From contig NZ_AP024086.1 of NCBI RefSeq assembly GCF_019703855.1, positions 434,001 through 498,000 of the forward strand: DNA of 64,000 nucleotides, read 5' to 3'. The position numbers and the translations under genes were made by a program. The notes beneath the pieces were generated by a model, which was given only the letters and a program-made list of their open reading frames with translations, had not been told where the DNA came from and searched no databases. This document shows positions 38,495 to 62,398 of the stretch, piece by piece. The DNA comes from Desulfomarina profundi (GTDB taxonomy: Bacteria > Desulfobacterota > Desulfobulbia > Desulfobulbales > Desulfocapsaceae). The stretch's first letter is position 1; every line of letters begins with the position of its first letter.

Positions 38495-38502
38495 CTGACG
38501 AA

Positions 38503-41884: not shown

Positions 41885-41977
41885 TGACCAGCGACAATTA
41901 TAATTCCTTTTGACGACAATTAAATTTCCCGGAAAATTGTGATCTGATTATTCATATTTCTCAAAGGAGGAATATGG

Positions 41978-43461
41978 ATGGTCACAGATATTCAGGTGAG
42001 GAAATTGAAGAAATACTTAAGTCAAGGGAAGACGTTGGAAGTAGCAGCGGCTAGAGCCGGCATGGATGAGAAAACCGGTCGCAAGTATAGAGATAATGGC
42101 AAATTGCCAAGTGAGATCAGTGCGGAGCGAGTGAGGGAGTGGCGAACTCGTAAAGATCCTTTTGAAGGTATATGGCCAGAGGTTTTACAATTTCTGGAAA
42201 CTAATGAAGGTTTGGAAGCCAAAACTCTTTTTACCCATTTTCAAAGGATTTATCCCGGTTCTTTTGGAGATGGCCAGCTCCGCACGTTTCAACGTCGAGT
42301 AAAAACCTGGCGTTGTACAGAAGGTCCAGGACGTGAAGTTTATTTTCCCCAGGTGCATGTGCCTGCACGGTTGAGTCAGTCTGATTTTACAGATATGTCC
42401 CAATTACAGATCAGTATTGGTGGTCAGCCTTTTGATCACCTGATCTACCATTTTGTGCTGACATATTCGAACTGGGAGACAGGAACGATCTGTTTTTCCG
42501 AGAGTTTCGAAAGCCTGAGCGAAGGATTACAGAAGAGTCTATGGAAACTTGGCGGAGTTCCAGAACAACATCAAACAGACAGGTTGTCAGCTGCGGTGAA
42601 TAAACCGGATAACCCGGAAGAGTTTACCCGTGGCTACCAGGGGCTTTTGGCCCATTACAAATTGCAAGGCCGTAAAATCAATTCGTCAAGCCCCACGAAA
42701 ATGGTGACATTGAGCAGCGCCATCATCGTTTCAAGAAAGCCGTAGATCAGGCCCTGATGCTGCGAGGTAACCGGGATTTTACTACACGCAAGGAATATGA
42801 GTTATTTCTACAGAAGCTGTTTGCACAACTCAACTGCAACCGCCAGGAGCGCTTTCAAGAAGAACAGTCGATGTTGCGTCCACTGCCTTCGGGTAAGCTC
42901 GACACATGTACTCGTTTTGAAGTTCGAGTTGGTCCCAGCAGTACGATCAGAGTAAAGCACAAGGTTTACTCGGTGAATAGTCGACTTATCAAAGAAACAG
43001 TCACAGTGCGGCTGTATGCAGAGTATCTGGAGATCTGGTACGGTCAGAAACATATTGAGAATATCCCCAGAATACGAGGCGGTAGCAAACATTATATCCA
43101 GTACCGCCATATAATTGACTGGCTGGTTCGAAAACCCGGTGCATTTGAGAACTACAGATACCGCAGTGATCTTTTTCCTACGAGCAGGTTCCGGGTTGCC
43201 TATGACTCTCTGCGCAAATTTCGTACCGTTACGGGAGCAGCAAAAGAATACTTATCTATTTTACAGCTTGCTGCCCAAGATAATGAGACAGCTGTAGATG
43301 ATGCCCTTCGTCATCTGATTGACCATGAAAAGAACATTGATTTTGCCCAGGTAAAAACACTGCTTGTCTCTGGTAAACCGGTTGAACCGATTACCAATAT
43401 TTCTGTCCAGACTGTTGCCCTCACAGGCTATGATCAACTCTTACAGGAGGGTTGCAGATGA
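41978..43461 (+). CDS. istA: IstA transposase of IS21 (frameshifted as read)
   Basis: ATG 41978 behind AAAGGAGG. HTH (LSQGKTLEVAAARAGMDEKTGRKY), DDE domain (QSDFTDMSQLQI, YSNWETGTICFSES), then after a one-base loss near 42688 (KPHENGDIEQRHHRFKKAVDQALMLRG in the other frame) the C-terminal region to 43461. One restored base gives 494 residues, the normal IstA length. As read it is 41978-42745 plus 42757-43461. May be a sequencing undercall, so the element could be active. Confidence 0.85.
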
Positions 43462-44219
43462 GTTCAACCGATAATCGAATTATCCTGGATGCGTCTCTTA
43501 AAAAGCTTTATCTGTCAACTATCCGAGCCTGTTACCAGGAGGAGGCGGATTTGGCGAGAAAGGAATCACTAAGCTATGAATCATACCTTCAGGAACTGGT
43601 TGTGCGGGAGTGTGAAGAAAGACGCCATAAACGCATTACCAGATATTTGCGAGAATCCAGACTGCCCCTGGAAAAAAACTTAGCTTCGTTTGAAATGGAT
43701 CGGCTTCCGGCCAAACTGAGCGGCTTTGTCAATAGTTTGCTGGAAGGTTCTTTTCTTGACAGGTGTGAAAACATACTAGCTTTTGGAAACCCAGGTAGTG
43801 GAAAAACCCATCTGCTCTGTGCCATTGCCCAGGAACTGATTAACAAGGATAGGCGTGTTTTCTTTTCTCCGTGCAGTCTGCTGGTGCAAAATCTGCTGGT
43901 GGCCAAAAAGGAGCTTGTTCTTCCAAGATTTCTGAAAAAACTTGCCAAGTATGATGCCATACTGATCGACGATATCGGCTATGTCCAGCAAAGCCGAGAA
44001 GAAATGGAAGTGCTCTTTACCCTTCTTGCGTATTGTTATGAACGGAACAGTATCATGCTAACCAGCAATTTACCATTTTCACAGTGGGAGAAGATATTTA
44101 AAGATCCAATGACTACGGCTGCAGCGATAGACCGGCTTGTGCATCATAGCGTAATACTGGAACTTAATCTTGATAGCTACAGACTGGAAAAAGCAAAACA
44201 AAGCCTTGAGGAAAATTAA
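43458..44219 (+). CDS. istB: IstB helper ATPase of IS21
   Basis: ATG 43458 overlaps the istA stop (ATGA) with CAGGAGGG upstream. 253 residues, DnaC-like AAA+: Walker A GNPGSGKTHLL, Walker B ILIDDIGYV, sensor LTSNLPFSQW. Provides target selection/assembly for IstA. Confidence 0.92.
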   Translation: MSSTDNRIILDASLKKLYLSTIRACYQEEADLARKESLSYESYLQELVVRECEERRHKRITRYLRESRLPLEKNLASFEMDRLPAKLSGFVNSLLEGSFLDRCENILAFGNPGSGKTHLLCAIAQELINKDRRVFFSPCSLLVQNLLVAKKELVLPRFLKKLAKYDAILIDDIGYVQQSREEMEVLFTLLAYCYERNSIMLTSNLPFSQWEKIFKDPMTTAAAIDRLVHHSVILELNLDSYRLEKAKQSLEEN

Positions 44220-44293
44220 TAATCACAGAATAGGGGGCTCTGCCCCCAACCCCCGAGGTTTAACGCATTGTGGCCATGAGGATGAAGAAAGAA

Positions 44294-44323
44294 AAGACCG
44301 GGCAAATCCTTATACCCGGTCTT
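44294..44323 (+). terminator. Hairpin after istB
   Basis: AAGACCGGG (44294-44302) pairs with CCCGGTCTT (44315-44323). A second GC hairpin GGGGGC/GCCCCC lies at 44233-44247. Both sit in the 300-bp non-coding tail of the IS21 element. Confidence 0.5.
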
Positions 44324-44524
44324 CATCCTTACGGCACTCATCTCGGCGCTCGGGTCGCTCCTCAGCGTTGCCCTATCCTCCGGATGAGTACAAATAAGTT
44401 ACATTTTAGATGAGGACACTGCAACAGAAACAGAAAAAGCAATGAAATATTATTGCGTATTATTATGTGGTTAAGGCCGGAATTATAATTGTCGCCAGCC
44501 GGGAATTATAATTGTCGTTGATTA

Positions 44525-44791
44525 CCAGAGGCTTTTATTCCAATACCATTTGCAATTGACGTCGACGATGAGAGGTATGAAGAATCATGGTCAGACAATC
44601 TTATCATGTTTCATAACCCCAATGCTCTCAATCCAATTAACCCAGAGTGGTTTTGGGATATTTCACATTATTGGTGGGATAGCGAAGAAGAAACATTTAT
44701 TGGAAACATAAGGCTGTATGATGTCATTGCTCCAATTAACATAGCACTAACTCATACATCAAATGGGAATATGGCCCCTGACGAAAGGTAA
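44525..44791 (+). pseudogene. Fourth Ter-module gene, 3' part
   Basis: Continues the interrupted frame from the IS21 edge: PEAFIPIPFAIDVDDERYEESWSDN...NPEWFWDISHYWWDSEEETF...MAPDER, stop at 44791. Joined in frame to the part ending at 41884 once the element and one CCAGAG are removed. Confidence 0.7.
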
Positions 44792-45427: not shown

Positions 45428-46066
45428 CTATTGTTTTTTCACATCCTTATAGTCAGGTTTAAAAACCGGCAATGGTCGTATAATTTTAATGGTCTTGCCT
45501 CGATAATCGCTAAACTGTTCCAGGTATTCTGCATCCGGTAATATTTTCCTGCCAAAAAAATCGGTGGCATAATGTTGTTTTAAGTACTCCAGTCCATTTT
45601 CATATGGATAAAGATACCTGATCCCCAGTGTGATACCTGCCGGTATCATCCTGCCCTTAAATTTTTGGTTTTCCTGAATCACTCCCTTGAGCTTCCAGAG
45701 TATCGCCTTCCCTGCCCGCATTTTTCCATTGAATGAGGGCAGGTTCCTGTCAAATACAATCTCCTTTGAATGACCTATCACGATCTCAATCGATTCTATA
45801 TCAAAGCGGACTGCACAGTATATCTCAATTTCAAACCTGCCGTCAGAATCAGGCGAGTGACCGGGAAGAAACCGTATTGATGCCCTCACGGCATCGGGAA
45901 GTTTCGCTCTTACCGCAGGGGTGGCAAATGAAGTCTGTGACCATCCTGTCAATAATACCAGCAATAAAACCATATATTTTGTGCAGGTAGTCGGTATCCA
46001 AATAGAGTGGATGAACTCTTGTTTGCCTTCGGAATCGAGTGTGTTAACGGTACGCATAAACCACAT
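45428..46066 (-). CDS. Exported protein of the envelope cluster, unknown
   Basis: 212 residues from ATG 46066, which follows GAGAGAGA seven bases after the ankyrin gene stop. A hydrophobic segment (MVLLLVLLTGWSQTSFA, about 32-48) looks like a signal peptide, so initiation at ATG 45973 is an alternative, though no ribosome site is seen there. The mature part has FLPGHSPDSDGRFEIEIYCAVRFDIESIEI, a beta-rich domain. Last gene of the cluster; family unknown. Confidence 0.6.
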   Translation of the reverse strand: MWFMRTVNTLDSEGKQEFIHSIWIPTTCTKYMVLLLVLLTGWSQTSFATPAVRAKLPDAVRASIRFLPGHSPDSDGRFEIEIYCAVRFDIESIEIVIGHSKEIVFDRNLPSFNGKMRAGKAILWKLKGVIQENQKFKGRMIPAGITLGIRYLYPYENGLEYLKQHYATDFFGRKILPDAEYLEQFSDYRGKTIKIIRPLPVFKPDYKDVKKQ

Positions 46067-46073
46067 TCTCTCT

Positions 46074-48113
46074 CTAACTATCTGGTGTCAGAAGTCTGAC
46101 AATACCTGCATGATTATTTTTCCTGGCATGATCAATGGCTCTTCGCCCCTGTTTATCCCTCATCCCGGAATCTGCTCCAGCTTCGAGAAGCAGGGAAACC
46201 ACTTCTTTATGTCCTTTGGCTGCTGCGGCCATAAGAGGTGTCATACCGGCACGTTTCGTATCATTACTGACAAACTTAAAGTTCAGTTCTGCACCGGCCT
46301 GCAAAAATACCTTTACCATTTTCCTGTCTCCTTGCCAGGCCGCTCCCAACAGAGGACTCACGCCATAAACTGGTTGGTTGACATCAGCTCCAGCAGCAAT
46401 CAGTGCAGGGACGATTTGCAGATTCATTTTCATGAGAGCCCTGAAGAGTATTGTCTCATCTTTTTTATTTTTCGTATTGGGATTGACACCATACCGGAGA
46501 AGGAGTCTGGCATAATCGTTCTCTTTTTTTTCAATTGCTTTAAAGAGATCGACTTCCATGGATTTTTTTACAGTTTCGACCGGATTGCTATTCTGCAAGA
46601 TTTCAATAAATAGCTTTATATCAGTAATCCTTCTATTGTATTTTTCTTTTCTCCAATCAATATGGTCTCGTGTAACTGGTTTTTCATTTTCCAGTATTTT
46701 TCTGGATGTTTTTTCCTCTTTTTGCAGCCTGGGAATTTCTTTATCCGCTTTACGTTTTGCCAGCGTCAACGCTGTTTGGTTACTGGCATTTTTTGCCGCC
46801 ACATCGGCACCCGCGAGAATCAGTATCCGGGCTACCGAAAGATCAAGATCAGCAGCGGCTCGCATCAGGGCAGTGCTGCCAGCTGAAAGAGGAAAATCCC
46901 ATTCCAGTTTTTCCGCCGGAATCTCTGCCGTTGTTTTGCTCTTAATCTCAGCATCTGCATTGAGCAACATACAGAGACTAGAAATGTCCTTGAGACTGGA
47001 AATGTCCACGCTTCTTTGCCAGAATACAGGAGTACTTCCCACTGAATCTTTATGGTTAATTTCAGCACCTGACTCAATCAACAATCGCGTGCTTTGAGGT
47101 GCGGAATAAAATATTGCCGTTTGGCCAAACTTATTCTCTACATTTACATCGGTACCTGCCTGAATGAGTTCAGCCACCGCTTCCCACGGATGAGCCCCGT
47201 CAGCTGAGCTCTGATTCCCCGAGATTCCAGCCAGATAAAACAATGGCGTATCGCCCTGATGATTTGTTGCATTGACGTTTGCTCCAGCATTGATCAATAA
47301 ACGGGCATCTTCTTTTTTTTCAGCAAAAAACAGAGCTGTTTCACCCCAGGCATTGGTGGCATTAATGTCAGCACCCGCTTCCAGCAGCATTCGAACTATT
47401 TTAAACTCCTGTTGCGCAGCAGCAATGATGAGTGGGGTAGCACCGCTCGACGGGTCTTGATATTCTGTTTGTTTACTTTTTGAACTCATTTTGGTATTAA
47501 CATCAGCCCCGGAATGCAATAAAAGCTTAATAAGTTCAATTTCTTTATTGTAAACGGCTAAAGGCAAGGCGGTATCTATTGCTTCTTGATTCGCTCCTGC
47601 CTTGATAAGCTCACGAACAATCTCTTTCTGGTCATGAGGCGCAGCAGGTAATGTGACCGCATGGACGAGAGGGTACTTGTCATTCTCAAACCAGATTTTA
47701 TTGACATCTGCGCCGTTTCGCAGAGCCTGCCGGACCTGCTCAACCGAAGAACCAGTATTCGTGTCGTTGAGTTTTGCTGCCTTGATTGCCTGATACAACT
47801 GGCGATCAAGCTTGTACTGCTCATGCGGAATAGACACTGTCATGTCAATGGAAGGGGTCCCACTTATCATTTTAGCGATAATACGCTGACTGTTTTGCCC
47901 GGTGCCATAAACCCAGGCTTTTCCCGCTTCAAATATTTCACCATCAAGATCCAGGACAATCAGTACAGGATCACCTCTATCGGGAGTCTTTTTGGTGGAC
48001 ATCTCAATGAAAATCATATCCCCTTTAATGCCAGTTATCTTGCCAGTCAGCTCTGCTGCTTCAACACAACAGACGAAAAACAACAAAAACAATAATACAC
48101 TGAAATATTTCAT
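46074..48113 (-). CDS. Exported ankyrin-repeat protein
   Basis: 679 residues with a signal peptide (MKYFSVLLFLLFFVCCVEAAE), a small beta domain (about 22-95: GKITGIKGDMIFIEM, resembling the FlgT_C-type barrel) and then about eleven ankyrin repeats to the end (for example TPLIIAAAQQEFKIVRMLLEAGADIN, TPLMAAAAKGHKEVVSLLLEAGAD), split by a charged helix near 460-510. It probably acts as a periplasmic protein-protein scaffold. AAAGGAAAAA precedes the ATG; 58 bp from the PASTA-protein stop. Confidence 0.85.
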   Translation of the reverse strand: MKYFSVLLFLLFFVCCVEAAELTGKITGIKGDMIFIEMSTKKTPDRGDPVLIVLDLDGEIFEAGKAWVYGTGQNSQRIIAKMISGTPSIDMTVSIPHEQYKLDRQLYQAIKAAKLNDTNTGSSVEQVRQALRNGADVNKIWFENDKYPLVHAVTLPAAPHDQKEIVRELIKAGANQEAIDTALPLAVYNKEIELIKLLLHSGADVNTKMSSKSKQTEYQDPSSGATPLIIAAAQQEFKIVRMLLEAGADINATNAWGETALFFAEKKEDARLLINAGANVNATNHQGDTPLFYLAGISGNQSSADGAHPWEAVAELIQAGTDVNVENKFGQTAIFYSAPQSTRLLIESGAEINHKDSVGSTPVFWQRSVDISSLKDISSLCMLLNADAEIKSKTTAEIPAEKLEWDFPLSAGSTALMRAAADLDLSVARILILAGADVAAKNASNQTALTLAKRKADKEIPRLQKEEKTSRKILENEKPVTRDHIDWRKEKYNRRITDIKLFIEILQNSNPVETVKKSMEVDLFKAIEKKENDYARLLLRYGVNPNTKNKKDETILFRALMKMNLQIVPALIAAGADVNQPVYGVSPLLGAAWQGDRKMVKVFLQAGAELNFKFVSNDTKRAGMTPLMAAAAKGHKEVVSLLLEAGADSGMRDKQGRRAIDHARKNNHAGIVRLLTPDS

Positions 48114-48171
48114 TTTTTCCTTTTTTTAAACGACAATTCAAGGTAACACAAAGACTATGCTCCTTCTTATT

Positions 48172-51100
48172 TCACCGTTGGGAGTTATACTCACGTAACC
48201 TCCGCTGGTAGTCACGCCAGGCCTTTTGGTACTCTGCATCAGTCAGACATGGACCCGGAGCAGACCCCAGGATCCCCCCAGGACATTGATCCGGAGGTGT
48301 CGGCATATTTCTGTCAACCTCTATATCACCGTTGTATACTATAGTCCTTCCGTTCGGTAGGGTCAGTACGATCTGTGAACCAGTACCTGTTCCCGTACCA
48401 GACCCCGTTCTGCTCCGCCATTGCCCTTTCTGTGCCGCCAATATTTCGTTTTTATTACAACCTGTTATAGTGGCACTGGTTAAAAATACCAGCTGTTGCC
48501 ACTGCTTCATGCCTTTTACGACCGAGTTATTTAACTGGTTGAGATATTGCTGACATTCCCGCTGCCGATTGGCCTCTTCCTGTTTTTTCCGTCGACGTCG
48601 TTCTTCTTCTCTCCGGCGCTCTTTTTTTGCCACCTCCTGCCGGCGCTGCCTTCTGAGGTGTGCAAGTTTATCTTTGGGCATGCAATAGGGGGCTATAGTT
48701 GAATCATAACCACACCCACTTGCACATACACAACGGGCATTTTTTCTGGACTCGTCATAATAGGGTTTTTCACAGTAAGAACAATTCAGAGCAGTGAGTG
48801 CCCTGTCGCGTTCAGTAACACAACGTCTCAAGGAACTATCCCATGTCCCATCATCACAATAACAAAGCGCTTTTTCACGATTTTCACTCCATTCTGCGTG
48901 TGTTCCAGTGAGGCAATTTTTTTCGGCTACCTGAATTTCTTTTTTCAAACGACAACCATTCCCAGCATTGTTTCGTTCATAATTACCGGTACAGCCACAA
49001 TAATATTTCTGTTTCCTCTGATCCCAGAGAGGAGAGCTGCCAGGCAAGTCAGAACAGTCCGGCAGAGACTGTTCGTAAACAACAATCTCTATTACTTTTC
49101 CGGCTTTAACCGTAGAACCGGCCTCGGGTATCTGTGACTCAACAGTACCTGCCAAGCTCCTGTCCTTTGTCGGTTTATTTTTAACGATATCCAGCTTCAA
49201 GCCAATGGAGGCAAGTTGATCCCGTGCCTGTTTGCCCGTGTATCCTTTCACGTCCGGTACCCTGAGTGTCCTGACATATGGACCAAAAACGTTAACAAGG
49301 ACTGTTGCGTTGGCTTTCAGGCGCGTACCTGAAGGCGGATCAAGAGATCTGATTCTACCTGTCTGATTTGAAGAGGCAGCCTTCACCATATTTATCTTTG
49401 GTATTAACCCGATTTTCCTTATTCTTTTTATGACATCTTTTGCTCTATATCCTTTAAATTCAGGAACTTTTTTTGTGTTAACAAAAGGCGTATGGAGTAC
49501 TATCGTTATAGTAGCCCCCCGTTTGACTGTTGCACCGACACCAGGAGTGGTCTTTTCTACCTTCAAGGATTCCTTTTCACTGGATGCCGGAGTTCCAAGA
49601 CTCACCTTTGTTTTCAATCCGAGACCGTTTAATTTTGTTTCAGCTTGTTTTTTACTCATACCGGTGACATCGGGAATACTGGTAATTTTCTTTTTGGGGC
49701 TTTTTTTACAATGGTCTAAACCAGTTCCATTGAGTTGTGCCAACACGTATTCTTCAAGTTTACAGAGATTGATGGAATCAAGTGAATGCCGGTGGGCCCA
49801 GACATGAACTTCCGGCATTGAGCTCACAGGATTATCCGGACTATTATTGAGTGTGATGATCCCGCCGTTGGCAGCGGTTCCATACTTGCGACCCCATTTA
49901 TCAAAACGTAACCGGGCTCCGTCTGCATTTTCGAGAGGTTTTGCCCTCTGGAGCCATTTTTTGATAAGCACAGCGGTATCTGGCTGATGTGGATCAACAG
50001 CAGTTGATACAATTGGTTTTTTCTGTCTTTTACCTTCAAGCTCTGACCGCTTTGTCGGAAGTTTTTTTTCCGATGTATGCCTGACTTCTGTGTCTCTTGC
50101 TGTTCCCCTGCCATTAATTTTTCCTGTCGTATCTGCCACCTGAATGGTGTTCAAGGCTGGTTCATCAAACGCAGATGCTCTCGTACTTTCGATAACGGCT
50201 ATCGACTTTGGCACACCGTTTATCTGCAGGGTATAGGTCAATGACATCCCGTTTATTGAGAACTGTATTCGGTTTTCTTTTAAATGATCCGGTGTTTTCA
50301 GCAGTCTGTTATCATACTCAACAGTAAATTTTGTTTCTCTGAATTCCTTGAAGAGTTTCCCGTCACTTGTATACTCTGCTGTATAACTGAATGCCGGGTC
50401 ATTATAAAAGACGGAATCTCTATCGGTGGCATCTCCTGTAAACCTGATATCGGTAGTGAGAGAGACTCTCTCATCCAACGTCAGCCCAACCGGATCATAA
50501 ACATTATCCTCAGCTGTTATGACTCTTGAATTCGGATCATTTTGTGTTTCATGCCCTTTGAGCCCTAATTCCTGACATGATGGCATATGCAATGGCTTTC
50601 CCTTAGCTATTGCCTCAAGATCACCGGTACTGCTGATAAATCTCAAGCCAGGCGGCCACCGGTCATAGGATTTATTTTCTTCACATTGGTATTTCTCAGA
50701 ATCATAGCGGGTACGAAGATCAAATTTGAAATGAATCGACTTACCAACAGTGATTTCCGTTGGACAGTCTATACAGCGCAGTTGAGTCACTTTTTTATAA
50801 GCGGGAGTGAAGTCTTTTATAGTGTATCCCAGTTGGCCGGGAATATGTTCTATTTGTCTGGTCTTCTTCACGCTCGAATAAGGTTTATCATGAACCTCAA
50901 CTTCAGTAAGAACATACACGTATTTTCCTGTTTTTGTGCGGGCAGTTTTTTTCGGGTCAACAGGCAAAACATGTTTTTTCTGTTTTTCAAGTTGAAGTAA
51001 TAACTCAGGTGTTGTGTTCGAGAATTGCCCATTTTTGGAATGTAATGTAAATTCGAGTGGTTGAGGTGAGTGTTTTCCGGTTTTTCTTTTGATATCAAAG

Positions 51101-51402
51101 GTAACTTCAGCTCGTATCTTTTTACCAGCCCCAATCCTAGCTATATGCTCAGGTCGAATATTTACATTCGTTACAAATGAAGGGATTTTTTTTCTCCTGA
51201 TGGAGACATCCAGAACAGGTTCATGACTATCATTAACAATTTCAAGATAAACTCTGTTGCCAACGGTGCCTCCCTTAACCAGTTGGGCAGATTGTGAAAA
51301 TGCATTGACAGCAAAAAATATTGCACCCATCAGAAGAAAACATGTTGCTATCTTGAGGACTTTATCTGTTAAACATTTTTTCATAATTGGCTGTTGGCTC
51401 AT
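48172..51402 (-). CDS. Large exported protein with three PASTA domains and a Cys-rich, coiled-coil C-terminus
   Basis: 1076 residues. Signal/anchor about 10-36, a beta-rich N-terminal part (about 40-400; VYLEIVNDSHEPVLDVSIRR, DUF11-like), a charged linker, three PASTA domains (about 568-635, 643-710, 715-783: IPDVTGMSKKQAETKL, VPEFKGYRAKDVIKRI, VPDVKGYTGKQARDQL), a Cys-rich block (about 785-930, with many CxC and CxxC pairs), a basic/acidic coiled coil (RRREEERRRRKKQEE, about 940-970), and a Gly/Thr tail. PASTA domains usually bind peptidoglycan fragments; here there is no kinase or transpeptidase domain, so it is probably a wall-binding structural protein. GGGA precedes ATG 51402. Confidence 0.8.
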   Translation of the reverse strand: MSQQPIMKKCLTDKVLKIATCFLLMGAIFFAVNAFSQSAQLVKGGTVGNRVYLEIVNDSHEPVLDVSIRRKKIPSFVTNVNIRPEHIARIGAGKKIRAEVTFDIKRKTGKHSPQPLEFTLHSKNGQFSNTTPELLLQLEKQKKHVLPVDPKKTARTKTGKYVYVLTEVEVHDKPYSSVKKTRQIEHIPGQLGYTIKDFTPAYKKVTQLRCIDCPTEITVGKSIHFKFDLRTRYDSEKYQCEENKSYDRWPPGLRFISSTGDLEAIAKGKPLHMPSCQELGLKGHETQNDPNSRVITAEDNVYDPVGLTLDERVSLTTDIRFTGDATDRDSVFYNDPAFSYTAEYTSDGKLFKEFRETKFTVEYDNRLLKTPDHLKENRIQFSINGMSLTYTLQINGVPKSIAVIESTRASAFDEPALNTIQVADTTGKINGRGTARDTEVRHTSEKKLPTKRSELEGKRQKKPIVSTAVDPHQPDTAVLIKKWLQRAKPLENADGARLRFDKWGRKYGTAANGGIITLNNSPDNPVSSMPEVHVWAHRHSLDSINLCKLEEYVLAQLNGTGLDHCKKSPKKKITSIPDVTGMSKKQAETKLNGLGLKTKVSLGTPASSEKESLKVEKTTPGVGATVKRGATITIVLHTPFVNTKKVPEFKGYRAKDVIKRIRKIGLIPKINMVKAASSNQTGRIRSLDPPSGTRLKANATVLVNVFGPYVRTLRVPDVKGYTGKQARDQLASIGLKLDIVKNKPTKDRSLAGTVESQIPEAGSTVKAGKVIEIVVYEQSLPDCSDLPGSSPLWDQRKQKYYCGCTGNYERNNAGNGCRLKKEIQVAEKNCLTGTHAEWSENREKALCYCDDGTWDSSLRRCVTERDRALTALNCSYCEKPYYDESRKNARCVCASGCGYDSTIAPYCMPKDKLAHLRRQRRQEVAKKERRREEERRRRKKQEEANRQRECQQYLNQLNNSVVKGMKQWQQLVFLTSATITGCNKNEILAAQKGQWRSRTGSGTGTGTGSQIVLTLPNGRTIVYNGDIEVDRNMPTPPDQCPGGILGSAPGPCLTDAEYQKAWRDYQRRLREYNSQR

Positions 51403-51477
51403 GTAACATCCCTGTCTACAACCTGTTTATCTGGAAAAATACTTTTAGGCAGACAAAATTGACCGGTTCCTTAACAT

Positions 51478-53337
51478 TTAATATTTTCGCAATCTCTGAT
51501 TCGTTTGTAAAAGAGACTTGTATTTGACCCTCTGTTTGACCACTGGAACACGTATTGCTACATTAATATCCTTACACTGCCCAACAGCTTTTTCCTCCGG
51601 CGTTGTACAGTCACTCTCCGGAGCATCTAATCGCCTGACTTTCATCTGCAGACGAATTTCATAGACACCTGGCTTTTCCAGTCGTTTCAGACTGTAGGGT
51701 CGTACCGAATCCCCAGTTTCATCGGAAATACTGCCCAGCCTGATAATCTTGGGAGTATCAAAATCAAAAAGACTGTGTTCACCGTACGCTCCTTTTCTCA
51801 CCATCCTAGCCGGCCAATCCTGGTCAATATTGCCCCGTAAGTCCCAAAGCCCAAGTGTTCCAGATTTTGACCAGTTCGCTGTTGATACTTTATGGATAGT
51901 GAGGGCAAAGTAACTCACATAGTAGTCCCTCCACAGTCTTCGCTGCTTGTCCCAATAAGCTCGAGTAACACGTTCGTTCCTTCCGGGAGTCTTCAAAGCA
52001 ACTCCCTGGATCACCTCCAGATCAAAATCTACACTGAGTGGTGTTTTGGTGAGATATGGAGCTATTTGTCCCGGATTTCTATTATCACTTTCTGCGACGT
52101 GCAAACCGCCATCCTTTGCATTGTCAAGACGCCAACCCATAAGCATGGAATCTTCCCATCCGGAAACGATTTTATGGTTAACAATATATTCATACCACCA
52201 ATCATCCCGAACAATTTTGTTAAACGTATAATTCAGTTCCCCCCCTGGAACCGATCTGACGTCATTGCCACGCTGTCTCCTTTCTTCTGCACGTCGAGTT
52301 CTGACGATAAAGCGAGGCACAATAATATCCCAGTCAAGAACTTCCACTTTCACCTCATCACAATCATCCCTGCTGTTACACAATCGAATTTTCCCTCCGA
52401 CAGTCGGACCAATAGGAATCCCTCCACTACTGCTCGCACCCGGCAAACGTGAGTATTTTTTGATCTTGTCAAAATTCAAATTCAATACAATCGATTCTGC
52501 TTTTGGAGTAACCCGATAACCAGAGTTCGTTTTGATTAAATCCGCGTTATCGGCAGAAAGATCGATATATTTTTTTGAGGAAGGTGGCAGATCAACAAAA
52601 ATGACCTGGCTTCCGGTGTGAGAGCCCCTCTGTATGGAAAGGCGCAACTCCGTCGGATCTGCGAAATTAGTAACATGCTGAATCACATCACCATCAGACA
52701 GTTCACGTCCATCTCCCGACAGGTTTGTCAAGACCAGGCGCTGCTGGGCATTGGACGTAAAAAAACCATTTTTTTCTGCTGCTGTAACGAGTCGATGCCA
52801 TCTGTTCCGAGTCAATTCAATCGCCCGATCCCGTGACAATGGAAAATAGAATTTTACAGTGAGTCCCAGTTGTGTCCCATCTATCAGCTGTTTGTATTTA
52901 ATCAGCGTAGCCTTTCTCCCGGTTTTTTTGTTTTTGATCACCTTGTAATACATGTTACCGCCCACGAGAGGATCTTTGCCGATATAGGCCTGTTGCCATT
53001 TTTGGGGAACAATCATTTCATCAAGATTGCGGTAGGGTCGATTAAAAGCAATGACGGATTGCCATTTATATTTTGTCTGTTTTCCACCTATCCGCAAAAT
53101 CGGTGTTTCACTGAAACAGTAGGTGTCAGGTTTTTTCTTTTTCCCGCAATACTGGATGGAAGCCATTAAATTCTTGCCGGGCGGTGTGTCATCAGAGGCA
53201 CCAAGAGTGGCCATAATGATTTTGCCCACCTGATAATCACGTTTTGAGTAGGCTTGGGCCGGCGAGTTTAAAAATGGTGAACACAGGTATGCGGTAACCA
53301 GTATTGCCGTCAGCAGGATATGATTTAGACTCTTCAC
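51478..53337 (-). CDS. Exported protein paralogous to the upstream 813-residue protein
   Basis: 619 residues with signal peptide (MKSLNHILLTAILVTAYLC...AQA). It shares with the next gene the order GDV..HV.NFA.P, WDIIV.RF.V, F.LTIHKVS, VYEIRLQM and V.VAIRVPVV, so the two arose by duplication. Mature protein is beta-rich, with Lys/Arg-rich segments and no catalytic motif that I know. 63 bp after its paralogue's stop. Unknown function, envelope-located. Confidence 0.72.
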   Translation of the reverse strand: MKSLNHILLTAILVTAYLCSPFLNSPAQAYSKRDYQVGKIIMATLGASDDTPPGKNLMASIQYCGKKKKPDTYCFSETPILRIGGKQTKYKWQSVIAFNRPYRNLDEMIVPQKWQQAYIGKDPLVGGNMYYKVIKNKKTGRKATLIKYKQLIDGTQLGLTVKFYFPLSRDRAIELTRNRWHRLVTAAEKNGFFTSNAQQRLVLTNLSGDGRELSDGDVIQHVTNFADPTELRLSIQRGSHTGSQVIFVDLPPSSKKYIDLSADNADLIKTNSGYRVTPKAESIVLNLNFDKIKKYSRLPGASSSGGIPIGPTVGGKIRLCNSRDDCDEVKVEVLDWDIIVPRFIVRTRRAEERRQRGNDVRSVPGGELNYTFNKIVRDDWWYEYIVNHKIVSGWEDSMLMGWRLDNAKDGGLHVAESDNRNPGQIAPYLTKTPLSVDFDLEVIQGVALKTPGRNERVTRAYWDKQRRLWRDYYVSYFALTIHKVSTANWSKSGTLGLWDLRGNIDQDWPARMVRKGAYGEHSLFDFDTPKIIRLGSISDETGDSVRPYSLKRLEKPGVYEIRLQMKVRRLDAPESDCTTPEEKAVGQCKDINVAIRVPVVKQRVKYKSLLQTNQRLRKY

Positions 53338-53400
53338 CGTTCCCCTTTTTTGCGCTAAGTTGTCAATTTTTTGTTATTTGTCCACGGAGAAAGAAAACAA

Positions 53401-55842
53401 TTATAATCGTCGTTGTCCAGTCCTCTGCAGGACTTTCATATCAAAACCCACTGGTACCACCTGAAAACGGATGGCCACATCAACCGATTTTTTAGCTCTT
53501 TCTCCGTTTTCATCCTCAAGGTCTCCGCCGGACAGGGTCATCTGAAGTCGTATTTCATAAACCCCGACTTCACGTATGGTTACAGTTATAATGTGAGGCG
53601 TTGATTCAGTCCTGAGCATTCCAGAAGCACTGTCAAGTCCGACAAGAGGGAAATAATCAAACAGGTTATTTGACTCCCGTGCGGCGATAACCAGGCCTGT
53701 ACTATCGTTATCATTGATTCTTCTGTCGCTGGCTTGATTCCGCAGGTTAAAACAGGTTGAATAGTCGTTTTTCGTTTTCAGGTATTTCTTTTTACTACAA
53801 TCATTGTTTAATTTATGGACAGAAAGAACAAAATCATCAACTTCTATCAAACGCCATATCTTTTTTAACGTATCCAGGGTTACCTGATCATTTTCATAGA
53901 AAAGAGCATCCCCTTCACCATCCTCGAAGCCCTCTTCAGGCTCAGTATCTGTCACTTCAGTTTCCCCGGCAGGGTTTAAAGGAGGCAGTATCTGAGGGTG
54001 TTGGTATATTTCCAGGCCAAGCTCGATCTGTAATTTGCTGTTGACAAGAAAGACAGGGATTTCTCTACCATCTTCTTCCGTCGGATCAGCGGCGAGGGCA
54101 AAACTTCTATTCACTGGATTTCGTGTCGCGTTTTCATCCGGCTCATAAGGCCCCCATCCCATAATCACTTGTTCTGTCTCTTTGAAAACAGCGCTCTTTT
54201 TCCTTCCCTGCGGCCGCGTCCTGGCCAGGGTGTGGATTTTGTTCCACTCATCGAGGCGAGAACCGAGTTTTTTCACGTAATTATTGAAACGATAGTCTTC
54301 TGGATTTGGCTTTTTGCCAGCTCGGGTCCAGTTCTTCCGCAACCCTTCATAGCCGGATCCCTTGACAAGAAAACGAGTTACAATAATATCCCATTCCGGA
54401 GCAATCTGATCATAAAACATGGTTCTACTGTTCCCGCTCTGCACCGTAATCGGCACCAGCAGCAGTTCATCTTGCCCTCGAGAGGAATATTTCTGCAACT
54501 CTCTTTGTGAGTAAGAAATTAAATAATTAAGAGTATCTTTATTCCCTGTTATCTTGAACCCATCTGCAGTTTTTCGTGAATATGTTCCATGGCCACTCTG
54601 AATAGTGAGCAGAGACCTGTATTTTTTCCCAACCTTTACTCTGGCCTCGTAGTTTCCATTAACTTTTTGTGCCCCTTTGAGAGTTACTGGCAAAGAAACA
54701 GGATGGGCAAAATTCACCTGATGGTAAAAAACATCTCCGTCGCTGACATCTCTGACGGCTCCCAATCTGTTCCCAACGATGATTTGCAGTGGTTCCTGCC
54801 CCTCAGGTGTTATTTCCTTTTGTGAATCTTTCTTTGCCGGATCGCGATAGGGTCTTCCCTCAAATTCTTCCAGAACCAACCTGGCAGCAATTTCCATTAT
54901 GTGATCAATTACTGTCTCATCGATAACCGGGATCTCTTTCCTGCCAACATTGTTAAGATCTTGGCGATCACTTGAAATATGAATGCCGATTGGTGGAACT
55001 TTCGGCAGTTTGTCATATTGAAAAAAAGCATCGATTTTTTCTGAACCGTGGTAATTGATCAGTTTCTGGATAACAGGGATGAATGCACCCCGGAAAATAG
55101 CAGGCAGACTTTTTCCTTTATCATGCCTTTTTTCTACCAGTGGGAAGGGATAACGACCTTTCAATTCAGCAGCAACAACGGGAAATTTGCCTTTATAGTT
55201 GACGGAAAACAATCTGCCTCCAATTCCTGCGTACTGTTTTTTCTGCAGATGCCCGGACAGGGTAAAAGGATAGGACACTCTGGTAAGCCTGCTATTCTGC
55301 AGAACAACGGCATACCCTTTATGTTGTCCATTATCCTTGTATGCAGCAGCCGTTTTTTCGACGGAATCCTGTTGAAAATATTTATCCAGATCTTCACCCG
55401 TCATTAAACGTATCCGAATTTTATTCACCCGATGTGACCTTGAAATAGAACCGCTGTCCGTCCAATGACCCTTTTTCGCATTTTTATCCGTGAGAAGAAA
55501 TTTTTTTACCGGGTTGGGCAGGTTAATATTTACTGTTGGGTAACCATACCTGAATCCCCAACCATAGGGATTCCCTGGGATATATGAACCAATCGGGAAA
55601 AAGTTGCGTTCCTGGAGTTTGCTGGATAAACGTTGGGCTATTCTTGCCAGAGCTTTTTCCACATCAAAAGACTCAGCATGTTGCTTTGTTGTCACATGGA
55701 CCACGATATCATCAAAACGGCGACCTGCAATCTCTGTAGACTGGGCAGACGTTCTGGCAATACAGAACAAACTGGTAAAAAAAATCAGGAAACAAAAAAA
55801 AGGCAGCAAAAAGCAATAACTGTATTTTGGATATATCGTCAT
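53401..55842 (-). CDS. Exported protein, paralogue of the 619-residue protein
   Basis: Start chosen at ATG 55842 (MTIYPKYSYCFLLPFFCFLIFF), which has GGGGAA just upstream; the frame runs back to 55875. 813 residues, signal peptide ending near ARTSAQ, then an N-terminal region absent from the paralogue (about 40-300, FPIGSYIPGNPYGWGFRYGYP) and the shared C-terminal architecture (GDVFYHQVNFAHP, WDIIVTRFLVKG, VLSVHKLN, GVYEIRLQM, VDVAIRFQV). An acidic stretch (EEGFEDGEGDA) interrupts the middle. I know no family for it. Confidence 0.7.
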   Translation of the reverse strand: MTIYPKYSYCFLLPFFCFLIFFTSLFCIARTSAQSTEIAGRRFDDIVVHVTTKQHAESFDVEKALARIAQRLSSKLQERNFFPIGSYIPGNPYGWGFRYGYPTVNINLPNPVKKFLLTDKNAKKGHWTDSGSISRSHRVNKIRIRLMTGEDLDKYFQQDSVEKTAAAYKDNGQHKGYAVVLQNSRLTRVSYPFTLSGHLQKKQYAGIGGRLFSVNYKGKFPVVAAELKGRYPFPLVEKRHDKGKSLPAIFRGAFIPVIQKLINYHGSEKIDAFFQYDKLPKVPPIGIHISSDRQDLNNVGRKEIPVIDETVIDHIMEIAARLVLEEFEGRPYRDPAKKDSQKEITPEGQEPLQIIVGNRLGAVRDVSDGDVFYHQVNFAHPVSLPVTLKGAQKVNGNYEARVKVGKKYRSLLTIQSGHGTYSRKTADGFKITGNKDTLNYLISYSQRELQKYSSRGQDELLLVPITVQSGNSRTMFYDQIAPEWDIIVTRFLVKGSGYEGLRKNWTRAGKKPNPEDYRFNNYVKKLGSRLDEWNKIHTLARTRPQGRKKSAVFKETEQVIMGWGPYEPDENATRNPVNRSFALAADPTEEDGREIPVFLVNSKLQIELGLEIYQHPQILPPLNPAGETEVTDTEPEEGFEDGEGDALFYENDQVTLDTLKKIWRLIEVDDFVLSVHKLNNDCSKKKYLKTKNDYSTCFNLRNQASDRRINDNDSTGLVIAARESNNLFDYFPLVGLDSASGMLRTESTPHIITVTIREVGVYEIRLQMTLSGGDLEDENGERAKKSVDVAIRFQVVPVGFDMKVLQRTGQRRL

Positions 55843-56073
55843 GGATTCCCCATTTTCCAACCTTGCATATGACATGAGTTGTTCTTTTTTAAGTCATTTA
55901 TATCCACGAAATCAGTAAGATATCTGCTTTCACGGATTTTAACAAAATAAAGAAACTGGTATCACAAGTAGATGTAGTTGTATTAAGAACCTAATAAAAA
56001 CTCAAAAAATAGCTAGAAAAACGCTTGACATAGAAAATTATTACCACATAGCAGTAGTTTGGTCGAGTTATCA

Positions 56074-56110
56074 GTTCAGCAGCACCCCTGAAAATAACTT
56101 TTCAGAATCG
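56074..56110. repeat. 37-bp dispersed repeat, copy B
   Basis: Partner of 44799-44837. Located in the 270-bp gap between the 813-residue gene and the small secreted protein, a gap otherwise AT-rich with no clear promoter. Confidence 0.5.
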
Positions 56111-56111
56111 T

Positions 56112-56585
56112 CTATTTTCCTGACGGCTGATGTGCTACACAGGTGAAATAGCACATTATCTGACTGTTTTTCCCTGATTTTTTCGATATGGAGGACAAAA
56201 AAAGATAATCATTGTCCCGTTCCTGGACAAAACATTCAAAGGAATTGTCACCGGCGGTTTTATACAGATTTATACCACTCATGAAGCAGAGCTGAAATAA
56301 CTGCTCATACCGCTCTTTCCTGATGGATACCTGACATTCCCCTCTTATGACATGTCCCTTAAATCTTACGACAGGTTGGCTTTGCAGTGACCTCCTCTCA
56401 GTCAACCCACACCCTTCTGTTGTTATTGACGGAGTGGCATACATGGCAAATTGGCGGAGTTTTCGATCTGCTCCATATGCAAAACTTGCAGTAAAAATAA
56501 GGAAAAGAACAATGGAAGAAAGAGAAAAATGTTTTTTTATAAAAGCTGATTGCCGTTTTTCAAAATGACTGCAGAGGAGTCTCAT
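56112..56585 (-). CDS. Small exported Cys-containing protein
   Basis: 157 residues from ATG 56585, which overlaps the stop of the preceding membrane gene (ATGA), so the longer frame reaching 56939 is not used. A basic N-terminus leads to a hydrophobic export segment (LSSIVLFLIFTASFAYG, about 22-38). The mature part holds six Cys (TTEGCGLTERR, GECQVSI, FQLCFMSG, FECFVQ, MCYFTCVAH), possibly disulfides. Unknown family. Confidence 0.6.
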   Translation of the reverse strand: MRLLCSHFEKRQSAFIKKHFSLSSIVLFLIFTASFAYGADRKLRQFAMYATPSITTEGCGLTERRSLQSQPVVRFKGHVIRGECQVSIRKERYEQLFQLCFMSGINLYKTAGDNSFECFVQERDNDYLFLSSISKKSGKNSQIMCYFTCVAHQPSGK

Positions 56586-56941
56586 AATAGAATTGCTCCA
56601 AACTTTAATATCGGTAGAATCGCTGCAAGAGCAAAAAAGAAAAGAATGGCGAGCCCCATGCATAATGTTGCTGAAAGATGAAGCAATAGCCATTGATGGC
56701 GTGATTGCGATTCCTTCCCTCGGAGCCACAGACCAAACACCAGGGTCAGCCCTCCCCAGGATAGTGGCACAAAACCCGTTAACGAGATGATCCGGATTGC
56801 AAAATTGGTAAGGATCGGCAACGGCATTTGAGTTTCCGTATATTGAACCAGCAGGTTGCTTATCGGTGTAATAACAACCCAGGAAATGAGCCAGAGTAAA
56901 AAAAGTAAAAGAACGTTGCAACAGAGGGTGATTTTCCACAT
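56582..56941 (-). CDS. Small membrane protein (about 119 aa)
   Basis: ATG 56941 (MWKITLCCNVLLLFLLWLIS); an in-frame TTG at 56953 could also start. Three to four TM helices and the ending FFFALAAILPILKFGAILL, which resembles the end of the neighbouring 125-residue membrane protein, so the two may be paralogues. Couples by ATGA to the small secreted protein. No known family. Confidence 0.6.
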   Translation of the reverse strand: MWKITLCCNVLLLFLLWLISWVVITPISNLLVQYTETQMPLPILTNFAIRIISLTGFVPLSWGGLTLVFGLWLRGKESQSRHQWLLLHLSATLCMGLAILFFFALAAILPILKFGAILL

Positions 56942-56971
56942 GACATATAACAATCTATTTGAATTATCAGT

Positions 56972-57349
56972 TTATTGGATGACTGTACCAACAGACAGCA
57001 TTGGCAAAACAGCCCCAAGCATATGACAGCAGACAGCAAAAAAAATCCATATAACATGCATAAGCATGGAGAATACGCATCCATCCCCGTTAAGCCGACC
57101 CGAGCGTTTTCTCCCCCAGTACATACAGAAAGACAGTGAAAGTACGGCAAGAGATTGCCAGTGAATCATCTGCCACCAGATGGGAACTGGTAATGGAGCC
57201 AGGGTGATTAATGAAAACAGAGGTAGCTGAAGGGAATCTGAAGAGATTTGAAAAGACCACCATAATCCTGATGCATACCAAAGCAACACACAATAAACTG
57301 CTGTTAGACCAGTTAACAGCGAATATCCCAATAAAACAGAAAAGTTCAT
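56972..57349 (-). CDS. Small membrane protein (125 aa)
   Basis: ATG 57349 with AAGGAG nine bases upstream. Three to four TM helices (MNFSVLLGYSLLTGLTAVYCVLL..., LPVPIWWQMIHWQSLAVLSLSF, IFFAVCCHMLGAVLPMLSVG). Ends in the same kind of ALLPML.G tail as its neighbour. First gene of the likely envelope cluster. Unknown. Confidence 0.6.
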   Translation of the reverse strand: MNFSVLLGYSLLTGLTAVYCVLLWYASGLWWSFQISSDSLQLPLFSLITLAPLPVPIWWQMIHWQSLAVLSLSFCMYWGRKRSGRLNGDGCVFSMLMHVIWIFFAVCCHMLGAVLPMLSVGTVIQ

Positions 57350-57384: not shown

Positions 57385-57588
57385 TTAGGTGCTAACAACT
57401 TTTCGCAGCTTGAGTTTTGTACTCACTGCCCCAATCACAAACCGGGTACCATTGCCAGGACGACTTTTTGTGGAGCTCATGTTTTTGTAATAGCCGGAAG
57501 CAAATTCATCCCAGGGAATCATGAGGCTCCATTTGATCCAGCGATTTTTAGGAAGTAGTTTTTCGGACAAGCTTGCATATTCTACCAT
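57385..57588 (-). pseudogene. IS5/IS1182-type transposase N-terminal remnant
   Basis: 67 codons: MVEYASLSEKLLPKNRWIKW, IPWDEFASGYYKNM and GRPGNGTRFVIGAV match the start of DUF772-type transposases. The catalytic part is missing; the frame ends out of register (STKLKLRKVVST). A left-over fragment at the edge of the envelope cluster. Confidence 0.75.
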
Positions 57589-58163
57589 TGTATCACTACA
57601 TTTACTTCACAAGTAACAGTATGTTGAAACTTTTCAGGGATATTTTGATTAACTGACAGGCGACCCTATATCGGAGAATATGCATATGGATGTCAGTATA
57701 CCAGTGTGAAGGAGGTTTTTTGCTCAATCAAAAAACGGGTTCATTCTCTGTGTGGTGCGGGTCGTTCATTTTCAACAACGGGATTGTCGACGGGTATCCC
57801 CCATTCTTTTTTGGCTTTGGAGAATAAGTGAGGGAGAAGGGTTGGTTCAGCACGGACAGGATAGGCTGAAACTTTTTAGAGTCCGGCGTCTCTGTGTTTT
57901 GGTGATTTGAAAAAGCTTTTGAGACGTGAGTTTGTTTTATGATAGCTGATCTTGTACTGCCTTCCCTCTTTACCAATTACTGTTAAGCCACGGTCAAGTT
58001 GTGTAAAATTTTGTAAAGATGATGTTGGAAAAAGGAATTGCGCAGTAGTATGTGGGTAAATCTTTTTTGGGATCACCCTGAAGGATTTGGAAGAGTTTGT
58101 TAAGGGAAATGTTACAGGGCATTGAGAGAATTTATCGTACAAAGATATAAGGATCAGGCAGTG
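57589..58163. other. 575-bp region without a supported gene
   Basis: Two overlapping minus-strand frames (about 57728-57976 and 57876-58142) have no ribosome site and no family I recognise; a stretch reading GLTVIGKEGRQYKISYH could be a decayed mobile gene. It presumably holds the promoter of the exporter operon that starts at 58164, but no clear element stands out. Confidence 0.35.
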
Positions 58164-59423
58164 AAAAAAATCAGCTTATTTATAGTGTTACTGTTACTAT
58201 TATTTTGTATGGCATCTCCCCTCTACGGGCAAACATTGAGCTTGCAGGATTGTATTCAGAAAGCCCTGCGCAGCCATCCCGACATCAAACGATTCATCCA
58301 GCAGGTCAGGTCAAACCAGAAAGAAATTGATATTACCCGGGCTGATTATCTGCCGCAAATATCAATAGATGCAGAATATGACCTGACCAGAACGTATATT
58401 TTCCCAGGTAACGGAATCTTCAATACCAAAGAGAGTGATGGCTGGCAGGCTGGAGTAACGTTTAAACAGAAAATATGGGATTTTGCACGGACAAGCTCCC
58501 TTGTTAACGCCCAGGAAGTGCAGCAGGGAATAGCCGAATTATCCCTTCAAGATGCCAGGGCACTACTCGCCTATAAGGTGAAACTCCAATATGAACTGGT
58601 CCTTGTCCAGCAGAAGGCCATTGATGTCAGAAAACATGATTTTCAGACAAAAGAAGCGTTGTATAAACAGGCAAAAGCTCTAGTTGACCAGGGACTGAAA
58701 ACCAGGGCCGATGCCTCACGATTTTTATCTTCGACCTCCATTGCACAAGACAACCTGGCAATCGCTGAGTCAAATTTTTCAAAAGCCCTGATGATGCTCT
58801 CTCTGTACATAGGAGAACCTGTTTCACAGGATACTATCTTTGAAAAAAACAGTATCAATACCGAAGTATATTCCATTGATGAAAAGGTGGTTCTGAAAGA
58901 ATCACCCGTTCTTCAAGGTCTGGAGGGGAAAATCAAACAAAACGAATACCTTTATCAAGCGACAAGAGCATCTCGATATGGTTCCATTGATGCCATAGCC
59001 TCGTACTCGCATCTAGATACATTGAATGCTTATGATGCAACGGTGGTCGGGGTTATGCTCAGCATTCCCTTGTATACCGGTGGACGACTTTCGGCCCAGG
59101 AGGAGAAAGCTTTTATTGACAAGCAGAATGCAGAAAATGAATACAAGTCAAAAGTGTTGGAGCTCAAGCAGGATTATAGAACCTTGCTTTATGATTTGAA
59201 ACGCTTACAGCATACGATCAAGGCGAAATCCAACCAGTACAGTTCAGCTCAACAAACAGCAGACGTCATGAAAGGACGTTATCGTGAAGGACTTGCAACG
59301 TATATTGAGGTACTGGATGCAGTGGCCGTGATGTCGGATGCCGAACTCGGACTGCTCCAGGCAACATATGACAGAAGCAGTACAATTCATCGATTAGAAT
59401 ATTTACAAGGAAAAACCAAATGA
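58164..59423 (+). CDS. TolC-family outer-membrane channel
   Basis: GTG 58164 (VKKISLFIVLLLLLFCMASP) is preferred because AAGGAT lies upstream and the signal peptide begins there. About 419 residues with two outer-membrane-efflux repeats, long coiled helices, GVMLSIPLYTGGR near the second repeat and LEYLQGKTK at the end. Its stop overlaps the adaptor gene start by four bases. Outer-membrane part of the exporter encoded downstream. Confidence 0.85.
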   Translation, partial: KKISLFIVLLLLLFCMASPLYGQTLSLQDCIQKALRSHPDIKRFIQQVRSNQKEIDITRADYLPQISIDAEYDLTRTYIFPGNGIFNTKESDGWQAGVTFKQKIWDFARTSSLVNAQEVQQGIAELSLQDARALLAYKVKLQYELVLVQQKAIDVRKHDFQTKEALYKQAKALVDQGLKTRADASRFLSSTSIAQDNLAIAESNFSKALMMLSLYIGEPVSQDTIFEKNSINTEVYSIDEKVVLKESPVLQGLEGKIKQNEYLYQATRASRYGSIDAIASYSHLDTLNAYDATVVGVMLSIPLYTGGRLSAQEEKAFIDKQNAENEYKSKVLELKQDYRTLLYDLKRLQHTIKAKSNQYSSAQQTADVMKGRYREGLATYIEVLDAVAVMSDAELGLLQATYDRSSTIHRLEYLQGKTK

Positions 59424-61704: not shown

Positions 61705-61705
61705 T

Positions 61706-62398
61706 ATGAAGAACAATATAGCTATACGGGTTGAAAACCTCCATAAGTCCTTTGGCGATGGTGACAGCCTTGTTGAGGTCATTAAGGATGCCTCATTTAC
61801 TATCAACAAGGGTGAACTGATCGGCCTTATCGCCCCAAGCGGAGGAGGCAAAACGACCCTTCTCATGATGATCGGATGTGTCGAAGAACCAAGCTCGGGA
61901 AAGATCTGGATTGGTGAAGAAAAAGTATATGATAACAGATGGTTGACCAATGAAACCCGAAAAATACGCAGGGAGAAAATAGGGTTTATCTTTCAGGCGC
62001 ATTACCTTATTCCGTTTTTGAATATCATTGACAATCTGACTCTGCTCCCTCAGGCCAACAAGATCAATGAAAAGGCAGCACAGAAAAGGGCCATGGAGTT
62101 ACTCCGTTATTTTGGTATTGGGGATAAGGAAAAAGCGATGCCCTCCCAACTTTCAGGTGGACAAAACCAACGGGTTGCCATTGCCAGGGCACTGGTCAAT
62201 AATCCGCGAATCATCCTGGCTGATGAACCGACAGCGGCTCTTGACATGCAGCGCTCAGTGGATGTGGTAAAAATGCTGAAACAGATTGCAGTGGAACAGA
62301 AGGTGGCAATTGTTATGGTAACCCATGATGACAGAATGCTCCCATACTGTGACCGGATTATGAAGATAGAAAACAAGGCAACCATATTTGATCAGTAA
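61706..62398 (+). CDS. ABC transporter ATP-binding protein (DevA/LolD-like)
   Basis: 230 residues; 1 bp after the permease stop. Walker A APSGGGKTTLL, signature QLSGGQNQRVAIARAL, Walker B ILADEPTAALD, H-loop VMVTHDD. Powers the TolC-adaptor-permease exporter. Cargo unknown. Confidence 0.93.
   Translation: MKNNIAIRVENLHKSFGDGDSLVEVIKDASFTINKGELIGLIAPSGGGKTTLLMMIGCVEEPSSGKIWIGEEKVYDNRWLTNETRKIRREKIGFIFQAHYLIPFLNIIDNLTLLPQANKINEKAAQKRAMELLRYFGIGDKEKAMPSQLSGGQNQRVAIARALVNNPRIILADEPTAALDMQRSVDVVKMLKQIAVEQKVAIVMVTHDDRMLPYCDRIMKIENKATIFDQ

What the first reader, a model, noticed from the sequence alone, without database searches (positions are those of the whole stretch)
45428..57349. Eight-gene envelope cluster with no recognised function
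From 57349 leftward: two small similar membrane proteins, a Cys-rich exported protein, two large exported paralogues (shared WDIIV.RF, VYEIRLQM, V.VAIR), a 1076-residue PASTA/Cys-rich/coiled-coil protein, an exported ankyrin protein and a final exported protein, ending at a terminator. Nearly every product is exported or membrane-bound, and the small genes overlap by ATGA. It lacks any enzyme motif I know, suggesting a structural or surface-attached machine with wall binding by PASTA and scaffolding by ankyrins. This is the best candidate for an undescribed system.
Basis: partly seen in the sequence, partly recalled or inferred. Interest (0 to 1): 0.7.

Follow-up and report, generated by a model that had tools for sequence, protein, structure and literature searches.

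The report
Orphan envelope cluster around PASTA–cysteine protein
Eight neighbouring bacterial genes encode mostly exported proteins; most have no detectable relatives, but two of them – a wall-binding-type PASTA/cysteine protein and the exported ankyrin protein next to it – resemble a recurring, undescribed gene pair seen in a few distant deltaproteobacteria, whose function is not known.

Summary
The eight genes are real and nearly all encode exported or membrane proteins. The 824/619-aa pair are true paralogues (24 %, E 4e-15). Only PASTA and ankyrin match Pfam. The whole cluster is not conserved: the 824, 619, 212 and 157-aa proteins have no credible relatives in the related genomes searched (58–258 each). 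It lies in a lower-GC stretch with insertion sequences and a Shango defence system. What does recur is a two-gene core. Large exported proteins joining PASTA repeats to a ~40-residue four-Cys unit occur in G458, G500 and G566. In G458/G500 the next gene encodes an exported protein whose N-terminal domain resembles that of the window's ankyrin protein; in G393 a four-Cys-unit protein is followed directly by an exported ankyrin protein. Best reading: a wall- or surface-attached structural complex with a periplasmic solenoid partner. Toxin/self-protection and unrelated orphan genes remain live rivals. Function untested.

The parts
56972..57349 (-). gene 1, 125-aa membrane protein
   Evidence: ORF with AGGAG before ATG and two hydrophobic segments; no family match
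56582..56941 (-). gene 2, 119-aa membrane protein (ORF open from TTG 56953)
   Evidence: three hydrophobic segments; not similar to gene 1; no family match
56112..56585 (-). gene 3, 157-aa exported-type protein with 7 Cys; ATGA overlap with gene 2
   Evidence: no relative in 117 related genomes
53401..55842 (-). gene 4, 813-824-aa exported-type protein (ORF open from ATG 55875); Ig-like middle domain at about 360-485
   Evidence: paralogue of gene 5; orphan; partial model
51478..53337 (-). gene 5, 619-aa exported-type protein, paralogue of gene 4
   Evidence: no credible relative in 117 related genomes
48172..51402 (-). gene 6, 1070-1076-aa exported-type protein: unknown N-terminal part, PASTA x3 (about 575-776), three four-Cys units (about 784-905), charged coiled-coil stretch and tail
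   Evidence: PASTA E 8e-33; Cys units; same PASTA-Cys order in G458 and G500
46074..48113 (-). gene 7, 679-aa exported-type ankyrin protein with a small N-terminal beta-type domain (about 20-100)
   Evidence: Ank E 2e-55; N-domain resembles the downstream partners in G458/G500
45428..46066 (-). gene 8, 209-212-aa protein with a hydrophobic segment near its start
   Evidence: no family match; no relative in 58 related genomes

Best explanation
A lineage-specific gene cluster for a cell-wall- or surface-attached, probably structural or adhesive complex, built around a recurring two-gene core. Gene 6 is exported; its three PASTA domains would hold it on peptidoglycan and its four-Cys units and coiled coil would form a disulphide-braced stalk. 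Gene 7 is an exported ankyrin solenoid that would act in the periplasm as its dedicated partner (scaffold, chaperone or inhibitor). The paralogous genes 4 and 5 would supply modular secreted subunits with an Ig-like beta-sandwich; genes 1-3 and 8 are small membrane or exported accessories. Shown: the ORFs, hydrophobic export-type N-termini, domain content, paralogy, recurrence of the gene 6 architecture and, on few cases, of a downstream exported solenoid. Inferred: peptidoglycan binding, partnership of genes 6 and 7, co-expression of all eight, structural or adhesive role.
For: Eight co-directional genes, seven junctions of which six are under 100 nt. PASTA x3 then Cys unit in the same order in G458 (252 columns, E 4e-27) and G500; PASTA plus Cys unit also in G566. 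The Cys profile, built from the window and G393 only, found G458 at E 4.5e-12. Next gene downstream in G458/G500 is an exported protein sharing gene 7's N-domain; in G393 the Cys-unit protein is followed directly by an exported ankyrin protein. The only better-modelled part of gene 4 is a beta-sandwich whose neighbours are adhesin subunits, cohesins and carbohydrate-binding modules (Z 5-6, background level).
Against: Genes 1-5 and 8 are linked to genes 6-7 by position only and have no relatives in which linkage could be tested. G566 and G242 Cys-unit proteins have no exported solenoid next to them. The N-domain similarity is weak without the signal peptide (E 0.002; 5 bits against an independent profile). 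Pair recurrence rests on four genomes in three genera. No binding was tested.
Confidence: 0.36

Rival explanations
1. No single system: a stretch of strain-specific, probably acquired orphan exported genes beside insertion sequences, in which at most genes 6-7 form a functional pair.
For: No relatives of genes 3, 4, 5 and 8 in related genomes; eight-gene set absent elsewhere; low GC, transposase genes and a Shango defence set nearby; the flanking TolC gene also has only distant relatives in congeners.
Against: All eight genes point the same way with short gaps (one exception of 269 nt) and share export-type N-termini, which is more than random orphans would give.
Confidence: 0.32
2. A self-protection or antagonism pair: gene 6 (perhaps with genes 4-5) is a secreted agent acting on the cell envelope, and the exported ankyrin protein protects the producer in its periplasm.
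For: Exported ankyrin Bd3460 shields Bdellovibrio from its own endopeptidases (PMC4686830); the ankyrin protein Tli is a periplasmic immunity protein (PMC10294624); ankyrin and HEAT proteins are both listed as immunity proteins of polymorphic toxins (PMC3482391), and the partners seen here are ankyrin (window, G393) or HEAT-like by eye (G458, G500). Large multidomain exported protein followed by a small exported gene fits that layout.
Against: No toxin, hydrolase or delivery domain is recognised in gene 6 or its relatives; the polymorphic-toxin survey text held does not mention PASTA.
Confidence: 0.2
3. Part of an envelope electron-transfer or redox arrangement, with gene 7's N-domain acting like ExtJ.
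For: Gene 7 and both G458/G500 partners match the same segment of the NCBIfam ExtJ model; ExtJ is a small periplasmic protein of the Geobacter extHIJKL cluster (PMC6148476).
Against: Scores are 13-24 bits against a cut-off of 52.5; no cytochrome or redox domain was found among the eight products; the function of ExtJ itself is not known to me.
Confidence: 0.04

Closest known systems
PASTA-domain proteins (PknB/Stk1-type kinases, penicillin-binding proteins)
   Same: Three genuine PASTA domains in gene 6
   Different: No kinase or transpeptidase domain; PASTA sits in the middle, followed by four-Cys units and a coiled coil; far below the PknB family cut-off (95.9 of 450 bits)
Unnamed PASTA-Cys exported proteins of G458, G500 and G566, and Cys-unit proteins of G393 and G242
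   Same: Same four-Cys unit; PASTA in the first three; exported solenoid gene next door in G458, G500 and G393
   Different: N-terminal parts and tails are unrelated to gene 6; the other genes of the window cluster were not recognised near them
Bd3460 of Bdellovibrio (exported ankyrin self-protection protein) and Tli of the T6SS Tle/Tli pair
   Same: Ankyrin repeat protein working in the periplasm next to a partner gene (PMC4686830, PMC10294624)
   Different: Their partners are an endopeptidase and a phospholipase; no such enzyme is recognised here; resemblance is in kind only, sequence membership was not tested
ExtJ of the Geobacter extHIJKL cluster
   Same: Weak match of the first ~35 mature residues of gene 7 and of the G458/G500 partners
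   Different: Scores far below the cut-off; no cytochrome or porin-like gene recognised in the cluster

Membership tests
PASTA-domain proteins | PASTA domain above Pfam gathering score | tested here: met
   gene 6, 112.6 bits against 23.2, three stretches
PknB/Stk1-type PASTA kinases | kinase domain together with PASTA; family score above cut-off | tested here: not met
   95.9 of 450 bits, match confined to the PASTA part; no kinase domain
PASTA-Cys exported proteins with downstream exported solenoid (the recurring core) | PASTA plus four-Cys unit in one exported protein | tested here: met
   window, G458, G500 and G566
PASTA-Cys exported proteins with downstream exported solenoid (the recurring core) | exported solenoid gene immediately downstream, sharing an N-terminal domain | tested here: inconclusive
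   adjacent in window, G458, G500 and (ankyrin, no N-domain) G393; absent in G566 and G242; N-domain similarity weak
Polymorphic toxin-immunity systems | recognisable toxin domain at the C-terminus of the large protein | tested here: not met
   no toxin family in Pfam, NCBIfam or PHROGs for gene 6; an undescribed toxin domain is not excluded
Polymorphic toxin-immunity systems | neighbour gene neutralises the large protein | not testable with these tools
   needs an expression experiment
ExtJ | NCBIfam NF040942 score above cut-off | tested here: not met
   23.4 bits with and 14.6 bits without the signal peptide, cut-off 52.5
Ig-like adhesin, cohesin or carbohydrate-binding fold (gene 4 middle domain) | fold match clearly above background | tested here: inconclusive
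   best Z 6.2 (DaaE adhesin) on a poor model, background for this fold
Conserved eight-gene system | gene set and order found in another genome | tested here: not met
   none among the genomes searched, n 28 to 395 by gene; congeners are 72-88 % complete; genes 1 and 2 not searched

The most novel reading that the evidence does not exclude
A new kind of envelope machine of deltaproteobacteria: a PASTA-Cys wall-anchored protein handled in the periplasm by a dedicated exported solenoid (ankyrin or HEAT-like, on a shared N-terminal domain), here extended with a new family of large secreted paralogues.
Probability: 0.2. Interest if true: 0.65.

Novelty: new variant of a known kind. Interest (0 to 1): 0.4.

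Why it matters
PASTA domains are known mainly from kinases and penicillin-binding proteins, and ankyrin proteins working outside the bacterial cytoplasm are known in only a few roles such as self-protection and immunity. A recurring pair of a PASTA-Cys exported protein with an exported solenoid partner would be a new use of both, and two adjacent genes give a defined handle for experiments.

Tried and rejected
Relatives of the 824-aa protein: 28 and 258 genomes, viral contigs, plasmids and a motif scan of 85k species genomes (28) gave none; the motif scan needs near-exact peptides, so distant relatives could be missed. Weak hits L004, L006 and L071 were rejected: L006 is FliF-like and L004 lies among ribosomal-protein genes, L071 has five stops. 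Similarity of the two small membrane proteins: rejected. Rfam: nothing. PADLOC matches of genes 6 and 7 come from shared PASTA or ankyrin repeats and were not taken as defence. A HEAT-like relative elsewhere in G458/G500 sits in a different lipoprotein without a PASTA-Cys neighbour. The N-domain hit in G435 also has no such neighbour, so the N-domain is not exclusive to the pair. Weak Cys hits L027 and L028 were not confirmed by the profile on their ORFs; L061 is a different kind of protein. Foldseek of the gene 4 model: no match below E 0.04. The ankyrin model was poor (mean pLDDT 51) and was not searched. The second genome-contig scan returned only G393 itself. Literature searches found no paper on this combination. 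The guess that the host is a cable bacterium was not tested.

Full report
What is there. The window is positions 434001-498000 of a 4.3-Mb single-contig genome. A member of the same phylum is named 'Deltaproteobacteria bacterium isolate CROMO_BS_46_3' (G393), so the host belongs to a deltaproteobacterial phylum; a finer name was not established. The eight minus-strand ORFs exist as described. Genes 3-7 have a hydrophobic export-type N-terminus, genes 1-2 look like membrane proteins and gene 8 has a hydrophobic segment near its start. Corrections: the small membrane proteins are not similar, only genes 2-3 overlap by ATGA, 269 nt separate genes 3 and 4, and the terminator is poor on this strand.

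Homology. Only PASTA (gene 6) and ankyrin (gene 7) reach Pfam significance; NCBIfam, PHROGs and PDB sequences add nothing specific. Genes 4 and 5 are paralogues over their C-terminal parts. No credible relative of gene 4 was found in 258 genomes of its order, in the plasmid set, in viral contigs, or by motif in 85k species genomes. Genes 5, 3 and 8 found nothing credible in 117, 117 and 58 relatives, and the N-terminal half of gene 6 nothing in 395 genomes. Genes 1 and 2 were not searched in genomes. Six congeners lack genes 3, 4, 5, 6 and 8, but are incomplete (72-88 %).

A recurring core. The Cys-rich part of gene 6 hit a 1244-aa exported-type protein of G393 with four tandem units of the form C-x4-PG-x2-P-x-W-[ND]...C-x-C-x2-G-x2-WN...C, directly followed by an exported-type ankyrin protein. 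A profile of these units, from the window and G393 only, then found among 395 genomes of the phylum proteins in G458 (E 4.5e-12) and G500 (1.7e-9), and weaker ones in G242 and G566. The G458 and G500 proteins carry three PASTA domains immediately before the Cys unit, as in gene 6; the G566 protein carries a PASTA domain after it. In G458 and G500 the next gene downstream encodes a 233-aa exported-type protein whose first ~80 mature residues resemble the N-terminal domain of gene 7; its C-terminal half looks HEAT-like to me, without a Pfam match for the G458 protein.

How strong is it. The N-domain similarity is modest: pair E 3e-7 with the signal peptide for the G458 protein and 0.002 without it for the G500 protein; shuffle z 6.4 and 4.5; phmmer 8e-6 within 18 proteins; against a profile that excludes the window it is the best hit of the window but only 5-7 bits. 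All three proteins hit the same part of the ExtJ model at sub-threshold scores. A profile that includes the window sequence found the domain in 3 of 247 genomes, one of them without such a neighbour. G566 and G242 lack a solenoid neighbour. The pair is therefore suggestive, on four genomes in three genera, not proven.

Context. GC is 0.40-0.45 from about 30 kb on, against 0.43-0.52 before. To the left lie transposase genes (DDE type at 31919, IS66 type at 33738), Shango genes SngABC (34868-40710) and an IS21-type element with inverted ends (41884-44525). To the right, on the other strand, is a TolC/HlyD/FtsX/ABC export set (58122-62398); its TolC has only distant (about 25 % or less) relatives in congeners. 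The stretch may be an acquired region; its borders were not found.

Structure. The gene 4 model is poor (mean pLDDT 35) except about residues 390-460 (pLDDT 60-81), part of a beta-sandwich at about 360-485; its structural neighbours include fimbrial adhesins, cohesins and carbohydrate-binding modules at Z 5-6, which is background for this fold. The ankyrin model shows a few strands before the solenoid, at low confidence.

Mechanism. I favour a wall- or surface-attached structural complex in which gene 6 is the PASTA-anchored stalk and gene 7 its periplasmic partner, with genes 4 and 5 as secreted modules (0.36). Against it, the remaining genes have only position to link them (rival: orphan region, 0.32). 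A self-protection or antagonism pair is a serious alternative, since exported ankyrin proteins do this in Bdellovibrio (PMC4686830) and in the T6SS Tle/Tli pair (PMC10294624), and both ankyrin and HEAT proteins are listed as immunity proteins (PMC3482391); but no toxin or hydrolase domain is visible (0.2). No function has been tested.

Verdict. Real genes, mostly lineage-specific orphans; not a conserved eight-gene system; a thin but genuine lead to an undescribed exported PASTA-Cys/solenoid pair.

Noticed in passing
window 34868-40710 (+): Three genes match Shango defence proteins SngA, SngB and SngC (PADLOC E 2e-84, 2e-168, 6e-268).
   Followed up: partly
window 41884-44525 (+): IS21-type element with 24-nt inverted ends (88 %); the transposase is split into two ORFs (41978-42745, 42757-43461), followed by IstB.
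   Followed up: partly
window 31919-32446 and 33738-34679 (+): Transposase ORFs of the DDE_Tnp_1 and IS66 types, probably fragments.
   Followed up: no
window about 57408-57588 (-): Short ORF (MVEYASLSEKLLPKNRW...) just upstream of the cluster that looks to me like the start of a broken transposase; no Pfam match.
   Followed up: partly
window 58122-62398 (+): TolC/HlyD/FtsX/ABC export gene set next to the cluster on the other strand, with a response regulator at 62786; its TolC has only distant relatives in congeners.
   Followed up: partly
L060:9133-10032 (+): In G435 a relative of gene 7's N-domain (E 2.6e-4) stands before what looks like a PDZ domain, suggesting a general exported module.
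   Followed up: partly
L061:4635-7937 (-): In G480 two adjacent exported-type proteins share a Cys-rich stretch (E about 1e-5); the larger one ends in what looks like a caspase/CHAT-like region (by eye).
   Followed up: no
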